Virus record (IMG/VR): IMGVR_UViG_3300005582_000107 | Coordinates: 1 to 23,295 of that record | Length of the DNA: 23,295 nt | Strand: one strand, 5' to 3' | Source: a virus | In this document: piece by piece, positions 330-9,928 of the stretch | Layout: every line of letters begins with the position of its first letter | Position numbering within the stretch: position 1 is the first letter of the stretch | Position numbers and translations under genes: made by a program | Notes under the pieces: generated by a model | Databases searched by the model: none | Seen by the model: the letters and a program-made list of their open reading frames with translations, nothing else | What the model was told of the DNA's origin: nothing

Positions 330-448
330 TTACTAAGAATCGCACTATAACTACGATCTCTGCAGGCATCCGATTTATTTAATCAGATCTACCTAACCAA
401 CTGCAGAGTTTAAACGGTAGGCTGCGTCGATAGTGCAATTCTTAGTAA
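330..448 (-). ncRNA. Long folded intergenic RNA element, rod of three helices
   Basis: No gene occupies this stretch. In minus-strand RNA three nested helices form. P1 is 19 bp (330-348 with 430-448) with one G-U pair. P2 is 8 bp, CTCTGCAG/CTGCAGAG (358-365 with 401-408). P3 is 8 bp (368-375 with 381-388) with one G-U pair and loop AAAUA. A short CUAC/GUAG helix (351-354 with 417-420) is possible between P1 and P2. Both imperfect pairs are C-A mismatches when the plus strand is folded but G-U wobbles on the minus strand, which points to a transcribed minus-strand RNA. It lies between a hairpin at 462-495 and the ribosome site at 309-315. Role unknown: RNase III processing site, mRNA stabiliser or independent small RNA are all possible. 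Confidence 0.55.
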
Positions 449-461
449 CCCCTACTAGAGA

Positions 462-495
462 CACACATGACACCCAATTAAGGGCATCATGTGTG
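462..495 (-). terminator. Hairpin matching the 20-52 terminator, no U-tract
   Basis: CACACATGA (462-470) pairs with TCATGTGTG (487-495). An inner CCC/GGG stem (473-475, 482-484) closes loop AATTAA. It follows the stop codon of the 503-766 gene by seven bases, as its twin does at 63-302. Unlike the twin, the downstream RNA reads UCUCUAGUAGGGG, with no U run, so it may be a 3'-end stabiliser or processing site rather than a full terminator. Confidence 0.5.
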
Positions 496-502
496 GTGTT
501 GA

Positions 503-2251: not shown

Positions 2252-2476
2252 TTAGTCTTTTGACGCTTCTTGCGGCTCAAAATATGCGATTTTAACTTTG
2301 CCTTTTTGCAGTTTTGCATAGCTGATTTCAGCAGTTGCATTTCTAATTACAACTTTTGCCAAAGATGAGATATGTTTCGCTGCCTCGTTATTAATCCTAC
2401 CAGCACAAGCACCACGCAATACTGTTCCAACAAGAGAGTAGACTTCCGTAACATTGATAAGTTTTGCTTTAGACAT
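2252..2476 (-). CDS. Unknown basic 74-aa protein
   Basis: I place the start at ATG 2476, nine bases after AAGGAT, giving a 74-residue protein starting MSKAKLINVTEVY. The frame extends further upstream (to 2542), but that region is coding for the preceding zinc-ribbon gene. The start overlaps that gene's stop as ATGTCTAA, an arrangement seen again at 5087. The sequence is Lys/Ala-rich with a net positive charge and could bind nucleic acid, but no domain is recognised. Confidence 0.7.
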   Translation of the reverse strand: MSKAKLINVTEVYSLVGTVLRGACAGRINNEAAKHISSLAKVVIRNATAEISYAKLQKGKVKIAYFEPQEASKD

Positions 2477-3101
2477 TTTCTGAGATCCTTTTAAGTTCAA
2501 TAGTACGACGATATGCTTTTGTGATTTCTTCTGGAATATCACTTGCTTTTAAATTTGGAAATAAATTCGCTACCATTTTATTAACATAAGGCGTTGATAA
2601 AAATAAGGTATTATATAAATTTAATTTTTCTTGATACTCTTTCTTTTTAATACTCTCCCTCTGTGTTTTAGATCGTTTTATTGGATCTTTGTGATAATAT
2701 CTCAAAGCTATTTGTCTATAATGTTCTGGATCCTTTGCATAAGAAGCTCTTCTATAGACATTTTTACATTCCCTACACATTGTCTCTAATCCAGAACGTT
2801 GAGTTCTATTCTTATTAAAAGCTGTATGTTCTTTAATACACTTACAAGTATGACAGAATTTAGTTAATCCAATTTCAAAAGTTTCGGATTCAACTATTTT
2901 TTTAACAGCAAGCCTGCTATTCTCTCGATATTTGATAATTTTTTCTTTTTTATCAACTTTAGTTTCATGATACTTTTTTAACTCTTCTATATTTCGACAA
3001 GCTTTACATTTGCTTTTGTGACGTTTTGTACCTCCCATTCTAGGGAAAAGATGTTCTCTAGTTTCATTACAAGATACACATTTAAATGGTTTTAGTTTCA
3101 T
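2469..3101 (-). CDS. Double zinc-ribbon protein, possibly endonuclease-related
   Basis: The 210-residue protein has two CxxC...CxxC zinc-binding modules: C8, C11, C32, C35, and C83, C86, C109, C112. The second, with the pattern FCHTCKCIKEHTAFNKN...MCRECK followed by a basic helical tail, resembles the zinc module of phage HNH and endonuclease VII-like proteins. I cannot see a complete HNH catalytic motif in the tail, so nuclease activity is not shown. The start could also be TTG at 3131, overlapping the previous stop; ATG 3101 is chosen because no strong ribosome site supports either. Such free-standing genes in phages are often mobile. Confidence 0.7.
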   Translation of the reverse strand: MKLKPFKCVSCNETREHLFPRMGGTKRHKSKCKACRNIEELKKYHETKVDKKEKIIKYRENSRLAVKKIVESETFEIGLTKFCHTCKCIKEHTAFNKNRTQRSGLETMCRECKNVYRRASYAKDPEHYRQIALRYYHKDPIKRSKTQRESIKKKEYQEKLNLYNTLFLSTPYVNKMVANLFPNLKASDIPEEITKAYRRTIELKRISENV

Positions 3102-3117
3102 AATAGACTTAATAAAT

Positions 3118-3426
3118 TTAAGTATGTTCAATAATCTTAATGTTAGTCTTTCTTAATGCTTCCTGACATATTTTACAAGGCTTAGCTAATCCCGGAGTAC
3201 CATCTTCTTTGTATCTGAATATTTCTATTTTATAGGCTAAACTTAAATCTTTGCATCTTGTTATTGCATGAATCTCAGCATGTAAATAAATCTTTTGTGG
3301 TTGGTCCATCTTAGTTGCATACATAGCTTGCAAAGGATGTGTCTTAATATAACTGTTTTGACCAACACTTAAAATTTGATTTCTTCTATCTCTAATAATT
3401 GCTGTTACTTGATGCTTCTTATTCAT
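3118..3426 (-). CDS. Small cytidine/dCMP deaminase-like protein (102 aa)
   Basis: The zinc-dependent deaminase signature is present: H49-A-E51 and P83-C84-x2-C87, the ligands and catalytic Glu of the cytidine deaminase fold. Family members hydrolytically deaminate cytidine, dCMP or nucleic-acid bases. At 102 residues it is shorter than typical phage dCMP deaminases, and I see no allosteric extension, so the substrate is open. The ATG at 3426 overlaps the previous stop as ATGAATAA; the frame also allows TTG at 3438. In a gene set that also encodes a ribonucleotide reductase, a role in dUMP/dTTP supply is the simplest inference. Confidence 0.75.
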   Translation of the reverse strand: MNKKHQVTAIIRDRRNQILSVGQNSYIKTHPLQAMYATKMDQPQKIYLHAEIHAITRCKDLSLAYKIEIFRYKEDGTPGLAKPCKICQEALRKTNIKIIEHT

Positions 3427-3853
3427 GCGTATGATCAAAAAGCTTATAATAAGCTTCTTTTACTCGATTAATAAAACTTGAGAAAGACTCTTTATTTCGC
3501 CAGATAACTGATACAAAATTATTTGAAGATAATTTAAACTCAACGTGACCAGCTTTAACACCATATTCATACTCATCTGCAATCTGAACTATTGCAGTTT
3601 CAAAGTCTAAACTAAGACGTTTTCTTGCATTAGCAGGACTAACAAATGTTAATTCTTCTAACACTTGTTTAGCAGGTGGTTTAGCTACAAGCATATCGAC
3701 AATAGTCAATTCACCTGTATTCATGTCAACTGCAAACTGCCGACCTTTTGTTATAACATCGTGAATGAGACCCGACTGAAACAAGCTTTTAACTGGGGTT
3801 ACTAGCATAAATACACGATCATTTTCGATTACAAAACGATTAAGTTTAGGCAT
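3419..3853 (-). CDS. Unknown 144-aa protein
   Basis: Unrecognised soluble protein. ATG 3853 follows AAAGGA by eight bases. The N-terminal half is rich in short beta-like stretches (FVIENDRVFMLVTP); the C-terminal end (residues about 120-144) is probably an amphipathic helix. It is the first protein gene after the tRNA-Leu and is translationally coupled to the deaminase-like gene. Confidence 0.7.
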   Translation of the reverse strand: MPKLNRFVIENDRVFMLVTPVKSLFQSGLIHDVITKGRQFAVDMNTGELTIVDMLVAKPPAKQVLEELTFVSPANARKRLSLDFETAIVQIADEYEYGVKAGHVEFKLSSNNFVSVIWRNKESFSSFINRVKEAYYKLFDHTHE

Positions 3854-3897
3854 TTCAATAGTCCTTTAAATTATAGAAACAATAGTTACTTTAGTAT

Positions 3898-4722: not shown

Positions 4723-4906
4723 TCCTTTCCTTAAGAAGTCTTATGTACTCTTCTAATAAACATTGATAGTGTGCTGGACCCCAATATTGACAATCAGGGC
4801 CATGATCATTTTGTTTACTAAACCAATGTTGTTCAAAGAAAATACATTTAGTTAGTCTTTCTACTTCTTCTCTTAAGATTTTATTTTCTAACTCTTGCGG
4901 ATTCAT
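4712..4906 (-). CDS. Unknown 64-aa coiled-coil-like protein
   Basis: Begins MNPQELENKILREEVERLTK, a heptad-like stretch that probably forms a short coiled coil, followed by a Cys/His/Trp-containing part. I place the start at ATG 4906, seven bases after GAGG, although the frame is open to 4927; the longer form would run deeper into the zinc-ribbon gene upstream. The first 26 bases overlap that gene. Confidence 0.65.
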   Translation of the reverse strand: MNPQELENKILREEVERLTKCIFFEQHWFSKQNDHGPDCQYWGPAHYQCLLEEYIRLLKERNGK

Positions 4907-5087
4907 TAGCCTTCCTCTTGCTTCCACAGTCTTTACAAAGCCAGCTGTACTTAAGCTTTGTGCCTGTCTCTAGAGGTTTGTCTTTTCTACAATACGGACA
5001 AAATTTTTTATTGCCCATAGCACTAACTAATTTTGCTGTCATTTCTCGACGTGCTTCCGTCGAGGTTACATCATAGTCTTTAGACAT
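4881..5087 (-). CDS. Small zinc-ribbon protein (68 aa)
   Basis: From ATG 5087 the product is 68 residues with one CxxC...CxxC module (FCPYC and LCKDC, about 20 residues apart), followed by a basic tail (GSKRKANESARVRK), consistent with a zinc-stabilised nucleic-acid-binding protein. The start overlaps the previous stop as ATGTCTAA. The frame is open further upstream, but that part would overlap coding sequence. No catalytic motif is seen. Confidence 0.7.
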   Translation of the reverse strand: MSKDYDVTSTEARREMTAKLVSAMGNKKFCPYCRKDKPLETGTKLKYSWLCKDCGSKRKANESARVRK

Positions 5088-5328
5088 TACAAATCTCAAA
5101 GTTTTTATTAAATTCAGAATCTGTATAAATAAAAATTTGGTCTTCAATCCTTATTATCCATTCAGACTCTACAACAAACACATTTTCAATATTTGCCCAA
5201 CCAACTTTATCCCATTTGCCCCAAGAAAATAGAGAATGTCCTAAAGAACTTTTAATAGAATCTAATGAGTCGTATTTAAATTGAATAGCTTTAAATCTAA
5301 CATGTCGCTTAAATTTAACATCTTCCAA
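5080..5328 (-). CDS. Unknown phage protein with GDWI-like architecture (82 aa), TTG start
   Basis: The layout RFKAIQF near the N-terminus, then ENVFVV, then ESEWIIRI and a terminal TDSEFNKNFE recalls a common small phage family in which an AIQF strand is followed by a GDWIi strand and a C-terminal eF...Y helix; its function is unknown. The resemblance is partial. The start is TTG at 5328, supported by a perfect AAGGAG six bases upstream; there is no in-frame ATG near it. Confidence 0.65.
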   Translation of the reverse strand: MEDVKFKRHVRFKAIQFKYDSLDSIKSSLGHSLFSWGKWDKVGWANIENVFVVESEWIIRIEDQIFIYTDSEFNKNFEICNV

Positions 5329-5464: not shown

Positions 5465-5505
5465 TGGTAGGCGGTGCTGGGCTCGAACCAGCGACCAATG
5501 AATTA
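5465..5505 (-). pseudogene. 3' half of a tRNA (anticodon loop to CCA), 5' half missing
   Basis: Immediately after the CCA of the preceding tRNA, the sequence runs exactly like the 3' half of a canonical tRNA. It has loop end TAA, 5-nt anticodon-stem strand TTCAT, 5-nt variable loop TGGTC, T arm GCTGG-TTCGAGC-CCAGC, 7-nt acceptor strand ACCGCCT, discriminator A and CCA. Every segment has the standard length. The matching 5' half would start AGGCGGT and contain ATGAA; neither is found next to it. A deletion fusing the CATAA formed by the upstream CCA end with an anticodon loop is a plausible origin. Confidence 0.85.
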
Positions 5506-5582
5506 TGGTGGGCCTGCTCGGGTTCGAACCGAGACTCAATGTCTTATGAGGACACTGCTTTCACCGATTAAGCTACAGGCCC
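5506..5582 (-). tRNA. tRNA with anticodon CAU, probably Ile2, otherwise Met
   Basis: Acceptor GGGCCTG/CAGGCCC, D arm closed by GCTT/AAGC, anticodon stem GTGTC/GACAT with loop CTCATAA, T arm CTCGG-TTCGAAC-CCGAG, discriminator A and encoded CCA. It is not an initiator: base 1 is paired and the anticodon stem lacks the G-C run. Acceptor pairs C4-G69 and C5-G68 match the recognition features reported for lysidine synthetase TilS, which favours Ile2 reading AUA; elongator Met cannot be excluded. Confidence 0.93.
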
Positions 5583-5825: not shown

Positions 5826-6377
5826 TTACGCTGCAGCTTTTTCAGCAGCTTTCTTGGCGCGATAAGCTGCTAGAGCTTCTTGTGCCTTAGGATTAACTTG
5901 ACGCTTCTCTACACCTGCTTCGTAACAAGCTAGAACGGCATCTTTGTTAGCAATAATCCATTTTGCTAGATCTTCATTATCGCTAGCAGCGACCAGACTG
6001 TTACGTGCGGCTGTAGACTTTTCAGCCTCATCCATACGCTTGACACTTGGCCAGCGGAATGATTCTAGAATTGCAGATGCATGTTCTTGCAAGAAAGCAA
6101 TCTTGGTGTTGCCATGAATTTCTTTTAGAGCGTCAAGCGCTTTTGACAGCTTGTTTGATTCTACTTTAGTGACACGACGAATCGTGCCGGTTTCGAACGC
6201 AATTTCTACCGTTTCCTGATTTTCCAATAGCCAAGTTGACAACTCTTTGTTGTTGCCGGTGACTTTGTTCAACGCCTCTTCGATCTTAGGACGACGAAGA
6301 TAGTTAATAGCCTCAGCTTTGGTGTCAAAGGTTTTGCCATCGGGAGTGGTAAATACTTGCTTTAGTTCGAATGACAT
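5826..6377 (-). CDS. Triple-repeat phage protein with DGKxFxTKxEA N-terminus (183 aa)
   Basis: Residues 1-30 (FTTPDGKTFDTKAEAINYLRRP region) match a pattern found in other phage hypotheticals. The rest is built from three repeats of about 45 residues, centred on ELSTWLLENQETVEIAFETG (45-64), IAFLQEHASAILESF (93-107) and DLAKWIIANKDAVLACYEAG (136-155). Each is preceded by an Ala/Leu-rich helix (EALNKV, KALDALKEI, ARNSLVAA). The C-terminus is Ala/Lys-rich. Composition is visibly less AT-rich than its neighbours. ATG 6377 follows AAAGGA. A structured leader precedes the gene and a U8 hairpin follows it, so it looks like an independently controlled, possibly abundant protein. Function unknown. 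Confidence 0.8.
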   Translation of the reverse strand: MSFELKQVFTTPDGKTFDTKAEAINYLRRPKIEEALNKVTGNNKELSTWLLENQETVEIAFETGTIRRVTKVESNKLSKALDALKEIHGNTKIAFLQEHASAILESFRWPSVKRMDEAEKSTAARNSLVAASDNEDLAKWIIANKDAVLACYEAGVEKRQVNPKAQEALAAYRAKKAAEKAAA

Positions 6378-7125: not shown

Positions 7126-8093
7126 TCAAAGATCTCATCAATCAATTTTGCAATGTAAGTCGAATCTACTCGACCTTCTTTGTTTTCAAGAGCACGTAAT
7201 AGTTGATACATATATGCTTGATCTACTCCAATTAATTGTTCACGTAATACTTTAGAATCTTCAAGGTCTATATCTTTAATTTGCCAAATAATTTTAAGCA
7301 TTTGACCTGCTGTGATTCGCCAACCTCTTGCAATAAACTTTCGAATACGAAACAAAGAAGCAATTGGATACAGACTACCACGATATAATAGAGCTTTTGA
7401 AAGAATTGATTCTAATGCTTCTGGGTGGTATTGTAAATTATTCTTTCCATAATCATAGAAACACATAGAATGAACAAAGTCATAGTTCTTTAAAATATCT
7501 TCAGGCTCTCCATAAAATCTAATTATTAATTGAACTTTATCTGTTAGTGTAATTGCATTGTCTGATAAAAATACTGGACTGTATTTATTCTTTTTGTTTC
7601 TAGTTTCTTCAAACAATCCCTCAGTAACGTCTACAGCATTTTTTAAAGAAAGTGATTCAATAAAATTACTTGCAGATTCTTCGGTAGCTGATTCAAAGTA
7701 TTCATATTCAGACTGTGTCTCTGAAGCTACTCCTGAACTTTTCATGTAAATGATAATTCTTTTTTCATCTTCATTTTTAATATTTTTAATAGTTTCTTCA
7801 CGAACTACTGGATTACAACTTGAAATTATATTTTTAGTTTTTAATTTGCCTTTATTAATATTAAACTCATTTACATAATATTCTGCAATAGCTTTTGCAG
7901 TTTCATAATTCTTAAAGTAAAGATCGTAATCATTGATTTGCTCGCCTTGAAGCATTGAAGCTATGGCTCCGCCTGACACAATTACGTTTTGCTTTACTTG
8001 ATTTGCTAGAGTTTCATCTTTAATTGTTTCAATCCAGTTATCTAACTTTTTATCTAAAATAAGTTTAATTGTAGAGGCCTTCATTCCAGTCAT
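7122..8093 (-). CDS. Nucleotidyltransferase-fold protein (323 aa)
   Basis: Residues 38-60 contain the signature of the pol-beta nucleotidyltransferase superfamily: IVSGGAIAS, then QINDYDLYF with D55 and D57 as candidate metal ligands (GG-x(12)-DxD). This matches the head of poly(A) polymerase/CCA-adding-type enzymes and a group of phage proteins annotated as nucleotidyltransferases. The remaining 260 residues include a charged region (about 105-165) and a helical C-terminus; I see no second recognisable domain or third Asp with certainty. Substrate unknown: tRNA, other RNA, protein or antibiotic-like small molecule are all possible. The nearby tRNA genes already encode CCA, so simple CCA addition is not required. 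Start ATG 8093; an in-frame ATG three codons later is also possible. Confidence 0.75.
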   Translation of the reverse strand: MTGMKASTIKLILDKKLDNWIETIKDETLANQVKQNVIVSGGAIASMLQGEQINDYDLYFKNYETAKAIAEYYVNEFNINKGKLKTKNIISSCNPVVREETIKNIKNEDEKRIIIYMKSSGVASETQSEYEYFESATEESASNFIESLSLKNAVDVTEGLFEETRNKKNKYSPVFLSDNAITLTDKVQLIIRFYGEPEDILKNYDFVHSMCFYDYGKNNLQYHPEALESILSKALLYRGSLYPIASLFRIRKFIARGWRITAGQMLKIIWQIKDIDLEDSKVLREQLIGVDQAYMYQLLRALENKEGRVDSTYIAKLIDEIFE

Positions 8094-9189: not shown

Positions 9190-9419
9190 TATTCAACTCC
9201 GAAATACTTTTTGATTTTCTCTTCAATAGTATCTGCTGTAATAGGAATTACTACTTCTTTAACACACATCATACATTCTTTGATAATCAAATCGGCAAAT
9301 TTTTCTAAACTAATTGTTTCTTCCCAATTGTCAGAAATAATGGTATCAGTAGAATCTACCAAGGGATAGTTAATATTAATAACAGCTTGCTTAGCAAGTT
9401 CTTCAATTTGATTATTCAT
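9189..9419 (-). CDS. Small paralogue family member 3 (76 aa)
   Basis: The clearest representative: MNNQIEELAKQA at the start, LEKFADLIIKEC in the middle, and IEEKIKKYFGVE at the end. It has a longer insert (about residues 15-35) before the core than its relatives. ATG 9419 overlaps the upstream stop as ATGA. Two predicted helices flank a variable loop. The family is common in tailed phages, with no known role that I can cite. Confidence 0.8.
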   Translation of the reverse strand: MNNQIEELAKQAVININYPLVDSTDTIISDNWEETISLEKFADLIIKECMMCVKEVVIPITADTIEEKIKKYFGVE

Positions 9420-9562
9420 TTCTTTAATTCCTTGCTATTTTGAATAATACAGATGCTTTTAGACTTTTTAGCAGTGTTAGAATGTTTACAACACCAATCT
9501 GCATATTTAGTATTAAAAGCACCTGTATTATGATATACACAGCTCTTGCAGTGTTTACTCAT
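9416..9562 (-). CDS. Cys-rich 48-aa protein
   Basis: The 48-residue product MSKHCKSCVYHNTG... has CxxC at 5-8, CC at 24-25 followed by KH, and a further Cys at 38. This is a plausible small zinc-binding knuckle with a basic second half. ATG 9562 lies 14 bases after the previous stop and the end overlaps the next start as ATGA, so the packing supports a real gene. No family recognised. Confidence 0.65.
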   Translation of the reverse strand: MSKHCKSCVYHNTGAFNTKYADWCCKHSNTAKKSKSICIIQNSKELKK

Positions 9563-9576
9563 TTCTTTTTAATTTT

Positions 9577-9768
9577 CTATTGAAATGCACGTTTAAATCT
9601 TTCTCGATCAGTTAAAGTAAAACATCGAGTGCTGCATTCCATTACTACTAGCTCAATTAAGTATTCAGAAAATAAATCCATTGTAGAAATTAAATTATTA
9701 GATTTTTTAGCTTCTTCTGTTGCATAATCTTTAGCCTGCTCTACAAGGCTTCTCATTAATGGGTTCAT
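9577..9768 (-). CDS. Small paralogue family member 4, divergent (63 aa)
   Basis: From ATG 9768 the protein begins MNPLMRSLVEQAKDY, has FSEYLIELVVMEC in the position of the family core and ends RFKRAFQ. It is the most divergent of the four. The start is decided by AAGGAG four bases upstream of ATG 9768; the frame itself opens at 9783. The AAGGAG lies within the end of the 9770-9928 gene. Confidence 0.7.
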   Translation of the reverse strand: MNPLMRSLVEQAKDYATEEAKKSNNLISTMDLFSEYLIELVVMECSTRCFTLTDRERFKRAFQ

Positions 9769-9769
9769 A

Positions 9770-9928
9770 TTACTCCTTATCATTTTTAATATTTTCTTTT
9801 GTTATTTCAACCACTATAATATTACCTTTTACTTTAAAAGTACTAATATTCGTGTTTAGAAGTTTTTTAATTTCCTCTGGGTAATTAACTAAAAATTCTT
9901 TAATATCATCTTCATTTTCTTCTAGCAT
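9770..9928 (-). CDS. Acidic 52-aa protein coupled to DNA ligase
   Basis: A 52-residue ORF, MLEENEDDIKEFLVNY... ending ENIKNDKE. Its ATG at 9928 shares one base with the ligase stop codon (TAATG), and it ends two bases before the next start codon, so it fits the coupled gene layout exactly. Glu/Asp/Lys-rich, mixed helix and strand. No family recognised; coupling with the ligase does not prove a functional link. Confidence 0.65.
   Translation of the reverse strand: MLEENEDDIKEFLVNYPEEIKKLLNTNISTFKVKGNIIVVEITKENIKNDKE

What the first reader, a model, noticed from the sequence alone, without database searches (positions are those of the whole stretch)
5465..5505. Precisely cut 3' half of a tRNA directly behind an intact tRNA
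From the anticodon-loop end to the encoded CCA every segment has standard length and pairing in the T arm, but the 5' half is absent. The join is exactly at the CCA of tRNA-CAU, where CCATAA resembles an anticodon loop CATAA. It may be a deletion scar between two neighbouring CAU tRNAs. The surviving intact T arm and CCA also raise the possibility of a functional tRNA-half RNA (decoy for a processing or nuclease enzyme).
Basis: partly seen in the sequence, partly recalled or inferred. Interest (0 to 1): 0.6.

Follow-up and report, generated by a model that had tools for sequence, protein, structure and literature searches.

The report
Scar of a replaced phage tRNA
A virus of bacteria carries a complete tRNA gene with the back half of a second, broken tRNA gene of the same kind right behind it; comparison with many other viruses suggests this is the leftover of a selfish DNA-cutting gene that breaks a resident tRNA in its anticodon loop and brings a spare tRNA as replacement.

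Summary
In detail: minus-strand 5505-5465 is an exact tRNA 3' half (TAA loop end, TTCAT, TGGTC, perfect 5-bp T arm, 7-nt acceptor strand, A, CCA), starting at the CCA of an intact tRNA-CAU (5582-5506). The contig is from a phage whose DNA polymerase is nearest marine phage DSS3_VP1 (39%). No 5' half, integrase or host match was found.

The arrangement is common: at least 119 IMG/VR stretches, about 82 distinct orphan halves after sorting. Half (A) and intact tRNA (B) share identity (discriminator 76/82, permuted mean 56; best match has B's anticodon 34/80, expected 3). Many scars have an HNH, GIY-YIG or endonuclease-I-like gene directly before B, with the 5' piece of A before that: [5' A]-[HEG]-[B]-[3' A]. 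A relative of this phage (L004) has this full order at tRNA-Leu. In Acinetobacter phage AM101 such a gene splits tRNA-CAU within the anticodon; sister phages have it intact.

Best explanation: residue of a resident tRNA-CAU displaced by a second tRNA-CAU, probably through a homing endonuclease carrying a replacement tRNA. In the window the endonuclease and 5' half are gone, so that step is inferred. Functional decoy is unsupported.

The parts
5506..5582 (-). Intact tRNA, anticodon CAU (tRNA B, the replacement); elongator Met or lysidine-type Ile2
   Evidence: ARAGORN, Rfam RF00005 69.8 bits
5465..5505 (-). Orphan 3' half of a second CAU tRNA (tRNA A, the displaced resident): from inside the anticodon to the encoded CCA
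   Evidence: sequence; best matches are CAU tRNAs, CATAATTCATTGGTC identical in L131/L132
5476..5492 (-). T arm of the half, GCTGG-TTCGAGC-CCAGC, all five pairs intact
   Evidence: sequence, fold
5469..5475 (-). Acceptor 3' strand ACCGCCT without a 5' partner
5498..5505 (-). Anticodon-loop end (TAA) and 3' anticodon-stem strand (TTCAT); break point inside the CAU anticodon
   Evidence: same 3-nt interval is broken by the endonuclease gene in phage AM101
5584..5647 (-). Terminator-like hairpin of the upstream gene with a T run, ending next to tRNA B; equivalent hairpin in relatives L002 and L003
   Evidence: sequence
5826..6377 (-). Upstream gene of unknown function, conserved in six related viral contigs; in L003 and L004 it also precedes the tRNA region

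Best explanation
The 41 nt are the left-over 3' part of the phage's former tRNA-CAU gene (A). A second, divergent tRNA of the same identity (B, the intact tRNA-CAU) was inserted into A at the anticodon, so B works and A's 3' part is stranded behind B's CCA. The likely agent is a homing endonuclease gene (HEG): it cuts the resident tRNA gene in its anticodon region during co-infection, and recombination copies in a cassette of HEG plus replacement tRNA, which keeps that tRNA specificity alive while A is destroyed ('home and rescue'). Shown: the half and its exact join; that A looks like a CAU tRNA; that A and B share identity across many phages; that HEG plus 5' remnants flank many such scars, one of them in a relative of this phage; that a HEG splits tRNA-CAU within the anticodon in isolates whose sisters have it intact. 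Inferred: that a HEG did it in this window (HEG and 5' half are gone), that B resists the HEG, and that the half is now neutral.
For: Shared identity: discriminator agrees in 76/82 (permuted mean 56.4, max 66 of 10,000; neighbouring tRNAs 52%); best-matching other tRNA has B's anticodon in 34/80, expected 3.2. B as the mobile part: near-identical B with different halves, e.g. L035/L111 B 1.00, half 0.76; L074/L094 B 0.97, half 0.59. HEG: an ORF of at least 90 aa abuts B in 40/77 scars, while 149 distinct such ORFs were found for 1129 other tRNAs; these ORFs match HNH, endonuclease/resolvase-like and GIY-YIG families more often than controls. 5' remnants: 21 of 52 with a 7/7 acceptor match just before the ORF, control mean 3.5, max 10 of 1000. 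Full order in L105, L018, L031, L040, L111, and in L004, a relative of the window phage: 5' Leu remnant 9255, HNH_3 ORF 9291-9812, intact tRNA-Leu 9818-9902, Leu-like half. CAU: in phage AM101 an endonuclease-I-like gene splits tRNA-CAU within the anticodon, and the joined tRNA is present uninterrupted at 100% in sister phages; related genes stand directly before CAU scars in L037, L068, L076.
Against: The window itself has no HEG next to B and no convincing 5' remnant, and no second copy of this exact scar was found. Half of A's 20 best matches are not CAU. Only about half of the scars have an ORF abutting B. AM101 carries the HEG without a replacement tRNA, so rescue is not obligatory. No cleavage was tested. 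The survey pattern favours intact T arms and CCA ends.
Confidence: 0.7

Rival explanations
1. Plain deletion scar: two neighbouring CAU tRNAs, with a deletion running from the CCA of the first into the anticodon loop of the second, perhaps helped by the shared CA(T).
For: Two-base microhomology at the join; both tRNAs CAU-like; tandem tRNAs are common in these phages, e.g. Leu-CAU in L003.
Against: Does not explain endonuclease genes and 5' remnants around similar scars, nor the same B in front of unrelated halves.
Confidence: 0.2
2. A functional RNA: the half is processed to a stable tRNA-half or minihelix that acts as decoy or regulator.
For: T arm perfectly paired in the window; the half folds a little better than shuffles (z -1.8); 66 of 82 halves keep the outer T-stem pairs.
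Against: The survey pattern selects intact T arms; 16 of 82 have broken outer pairs; halves vary freely behind near-identical tRNAs; the acceptor strand has no partner; the 5' parts are degraded.
Confidence: 0.05
3. Attachment site (attP) of a temperate phage carrying the 3' half of a host tRNA.
For: Cut at the anticodon loop is typical of integrase sites (general knowledge).
Against: No exact host match in genome contigs; no integrase among the ten tRNA-region proteins scanned; it sits behind an intact phage tRNA of the same kind.
Confidence: 0.02
4. Trans-split or permuted tRNA whose 5' half lies elsewhere.
For: The contig is only 23 kb and probably partial; 5' parts do exist near other scars.
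Against: No 5' half with D arm and complementary acceptor in the window; where 5' parts exist they stand before an endonuclease gene and are often truncated.
Confidence: 0.03

Closest known systems
Free-standing homing endonucleases of phage tRNA regions (T4/T6 SegB)
   Same: A HEG sits among phage tRNA genes and cuts tRNA sequences, so that its own tRNA region is inherited or amplified (PMC13096335; PMC2988022).
   Different: In the passages read, SegB lies between tRNAs; no replacement tRNA inside a broken tRNA of the same identity is described.
Group I introns in tRNA anticodon loops with HEG
   Same: Same insertion place; the HNH family of L105 also sits in a group I intron inside a tRNA-Leu in L134.
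   Different: The cassettes L105, L128, L131, L111, L018 and AM101 have no group I intron hit; function is kept, if at all, by a second tRNA rather than by splicing.
Allomyces mitochondrial atp6 element (endonuclease plus replacement gene end; from memory)
   Same: An endonuclease ORF arrives with a replacement for the part of the gene it displaces, and the displaced part remains behind.
   Different: Protein gene end in a mitochondrion; here a whole tRNA in phages.
Home-and-rescue gene drives (engineered; from memory)
   Same: Cutter plus recoded rescue copy of the target.
   Different: Natural, and resistance of the rescue copy is not shown here.

Membership tests
Homing-endonuclease insertion in a tRNA gene | Endonuclease gene present at the site | tested here: not met
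   No HEG next to tRNA B in the window; present in L004, L105, L111, AM101 and others. The window is at most a remnant.
Homing-endonuclease insertion in a tRNA gene | Target gene broken at a specific site, intact in sister genomes | tested here: inconclusive
   Break inside the CAU anticodon in the window; no sister genome of the window with an intact A at this locus. Met for AM101 versus AbTZA1, AB-Navy1, DLP1.
Homing-endonuclease insertion in a tRNA gene | Replacement tRNA of same identity between the two parts of the target | tested here: inconclusive
   Window: B and A both CAU-like but the 5' part of A is missing. Met in L105, L111, L004.
Homing-endonuclease insertion in a tRNA gene | Sequence-specific cleavage and super-Mendelian inheritance | not testable with these tools
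   needs biochemistry and co-infection
Group I intron in tRNA | Intron core between 5' and 3' halves | tested here: not met
   Rfam finds only the three tRNAs in the window
Integrase attP | Identity to a host tRNA 3' end, with integrase gene | tested here: not met
   (only ten proteins scanned against PHROGs)
Trans-split or permuted tRNA | Matching 5' half in the genome | tested here: not met
   Not in the 23-kb contig; rest of genome unavailable

The most novel reading that the evidence does not exclude
Phages carry a widespread natural home-and-rescue system: endonucleases of at least three folds that destroy tRNA genes at the anticodon loop of rivals and bring a divergent, cut-resistant tRNA of the same identity, leaving tRNA 3' halves behind intact tRNAs as fossils; the window is one such fossil.
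Probability: 0.55. Interest if true: 0.75.

Novelty: new variant of a known kind. Interest (0 to 1): 0.58.

Why it matters
It gives a testable reason why phage tRNA clusters are so full of endonuclease genes, divergent tRNAs and tRNA fragments: tRNAs can be cargo and target of homing elements, not only codon supply or defence against tRNA-cutting nucleases. It offers a natural counterpart to home-and-rescue gene drives, and a recognisable scar by which past invasions can be counted in sequence data.

Tried and rejected
Exact searches for the half in bacterial genomes and viral contigs: nothing, so attP not supported and no second copy. Relatives through the 323-aa neighbour gene: none. 5' remnant at 5796-5790: lies in the untranslated region before the terminator, no D arm, rejected. 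Trans-splicing through nested mini-tRNAs was considered after L012, L009, L023, but those are a separate class. Duplication of B's own 3' half: the window half is 63% identical to B but 77% to another CAU tRNA, and for most scars other tRNAs match better than B. Permuted tmRNA: explains the 32-34 nt spacer hits, left out. Relatives of the AM101 endonuclease in viral contigs: none confirmed. First BLAST of halves against tRNAs returned no hits for any query and was replaced by pairwise alignment. Structure prediction was not needed.

Full report
OBSERVATION. On the minus strand the window reads GGGCCTG...CAGGCCCACCA (tRNA-CAU, 5582-5506) followed without a gap by TAATTCATTGGTCGCTGGTTCGAGCCCAGCACCGCCTACCA (5505-5465). 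The second piece is a tRNA 3' half with every segment at standard length and a perfect T stem. The window is the whole virus record (23,295 bases). Its DNA polymerase is nearest to marine phage DSS3_VP1 (39%), and it has a phage-type RNA polymerase C-terminus; I take it for an N4-like phage, which is inference.

WHAT KIND OF tRNA IS BROKEN. With the CA of the preceding CCA, the half begins CATAATTCATTGGTC, identical to intact CAU tRNAs in viral contigs L131/L132. Ten of its twenty best matches among 1087 viral tRNAs are CAU tRNAs (they are about 8% of the 1046 counted), and it is closer to these (77%) than to the tRNA in front of it (63%). So it is most likely the end of a different CAU tRNA.

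IT RECURS. After removing permuted tmRNAs and nested cases, 82 distinct orphan halves remain. The distance from CCA to the second T arm peaks at 13-17 nt, as expected for cuts at the anticodon loop or stem. The half shares the discriminator base of the intact tRNA in 76/82 (permuted mean 56.4, maximum 66 in 10,000; neighbouring tRNAs agree in 52%). The best-matching other tRNA has the same anticodon as the intact one in 34/80, against 3.2 expected. So the intact tRNA replaces a broken one of the same identity.

WHAT MOVES. In the Phe group and the CAU group, near-identical intact tRNAs stand before different halves (L035/L111: tRNA 1.00, half 0.76; L035/L118: 0.96, 0.62; L074/L094: 0.97, 0.59). 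The intact tRNA is therefore the travelling part and the half belongs to the local target.

THE ENGINE. 40 of 77 scars have an ORF of at least 90 aa directly against the 5' end of the intact tRNA; for 1129 other tRNAs in the same loci 149 distinct such ORFs were found (the two counts are not deduplicated alike). By PHROGs and Pfam the scar ORFs are largely HNH endonucleases, endonuclease-I/resolvase-like endonucleases and SegE-like GIY-YIG proteins; control ORFs match these families less often. Just upstream of the ORF, 21 of 52 scars have a 7-mer fully complementary to the acceptor strand of the downstream half (control with swapped halves: mean 3.5, maximum 10 of 1000). Most of these continue into a recognisable D arm, for example L018, L031, L040, L043, L105, L111; at least L104 and L120 look like chance by eye. 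The order is [A 5' part]-[endonuclease]-[B]-[A 3' part].

LINK TO INTRONS. Relatives of the L105 HNH protein sit between a tRNA-Leu 5' part and an intact tRNA-Leu(UAA) in L128-L132 and L135. In L134 and L136 they sit in an insert inside a tRNA-Leu; for L134 this is a group I intron by Rfam (67.4 bits), while L136 is intron-like by eye only and did not reach the Rfam threshold. The cassettes L105, L128, L131, L111, L018 and the AM101 locus give no group I intron hit. One endonuclease family thus appears at the same tRNA site with either a self-splicing intron or a replacement tRNA.

NEAREST TO THE WINDOW. L004 is a related contig (its homologue of the upstream gene is 71% identical). It has GCGGGGTTGGTGGAATTGGTAGACG... 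(9255, a tRNA-Leu 5' part, 7/7 with the half below), an HNH_3 ORF (9291-9812, Pfam E 4e-11), intact tRNA-Leu(UAA) (9818-9902) and a half ending ACCCCGC-A-CCA. L004 also has a tRNA-Thr followed by a half, with no HNH seen upstream. For the CAU target, Acinetobacter phage AM101 has an endonuclease-I-like gene inside tRNA-CAU: GGGCCTATAGCTCAGTTGGTTAGAGCAGTGGACTCAT^...^AATCCATTGGTCACAGGTTCGAGTCCTGTTGGGCCCACCA. The joined tRNA is found uninterrupted at 100% in AbTZA1, Maestro, AB-Navy1, DLP1 and others, while AM101, AB-Navy97, Apostate, DLP2 and AC4 are occupied. This break lies in the same three bases as in the window. No intact CAU tRNA was seen among the AM101 tRNAs listed, so a replacement is not always present. 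Related genes stand directly before CAU scars in L037, L068 and L076.

WHAT THE WINDOW LACKS. There is no endonuclease gene beside the intact tRNA: immediately upstream are the terminator and untranslated region of a gene conserved in relatives, and no acceptable 5' remnant was found. In the window the homing step is therefore inference by comparison; displacement of one CAU tRNA by another is well supported, and a plain deletion between tandem CAU tRNAs remains the main rival.

FUNCTION OF THE HALF. Nothing suggests selection: 16 of 82 halves have lost outer T-stem pairs although the survey pattern favours intact ones, halves vary freely behind the same tRNA, and the acceptor strand has no partner.

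LITERATURE. SegB-type endonucleases are known to cut tRNA sequences and to sit near phage tRNAs (PMC13096335; PMC2988022). Group I introns in tRNA genes are known in bacteria; a 2014 review stated that all phage introns then known were in protein-coding genes (PMC3984707). In eight searches of open-licence papers I found no description of endonuclease plus replacement-tRNA cassettes or of their 3'-half scars; subscription journals were not covered. The resemblance to the Allomyces atp6 element and to home-and-rescue drives is from memory.

Noticed in passing
L012:~3730-3860 (-), L009:4218-4340, L023:10696-10790, L082:6921-7065; also L146, L148, L150: Mini-tRNAs (7-bp acceptor stem plus T arm plus CCA; the shortest have no D or anticodon arm) nested inside the anticodon loop of an otherwise complete tRNA; in L012, L023 and L082 the joined loop is a normal 7-nt loop (Lys, Gln, Pro), split between nt 35 and 36. 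Could be a processed spacer or a decayed replacement tRNA.
   Followed up: partly
L063:7335-7465; L057:1266-1400: A complete (L063) or tRNA-like (L057) sequence nested inside the anticodon loop of another tRNA.
   Followed up: partly
L134:2400-3140; L136:2430-3200: Inserts inside phage tRNA-Leu genes holding an HNH ORF; L134 is a group I intron by Rfam. A 2014 review knew phage introns only in protein genes.
   Followed up: partly
L142 (Acinetobacter phage AM101 76652-78865): Insertion polymorphism of an endonuclease-I-like gene in tRNA-CAU among related isolates; occupied phages carry a broken tRNA-CAU.
   Followed up: yes
scar loci, e.g. L031, L032, L037, L068: The endonuclease ORF runs about 12 nt into the intact tRNA, so that the tRNA's own T8-A9-G10 (TAG) may serve as its stop codon; in L105 it reads through the whole tRNA and half.
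   Followed up: no
L010, L024, L027, L030, L039, L067, L079: Permuted-tmRNA-like genes directly behind tRNAs in viral contigs.
   Followed up: no
L097:~7240-7320 (-), L025:~420-500 (-): Stand-alone minihelix (acceptor pair AGCCGGT/ACCGGCT plus T arm plus CCA) directly behind tRNA-Arg(CCU), followed by a similar GC-rich stretch in both.
   Followed up: no
window 2469-3131 and 4881-5147 (-): Two small proteins matching endonuclease VII / HNH families near the window's tRNAs (PHROGs E 3e-9 and 7.5e-4), not adjacent to the scar.
   Followed up: no
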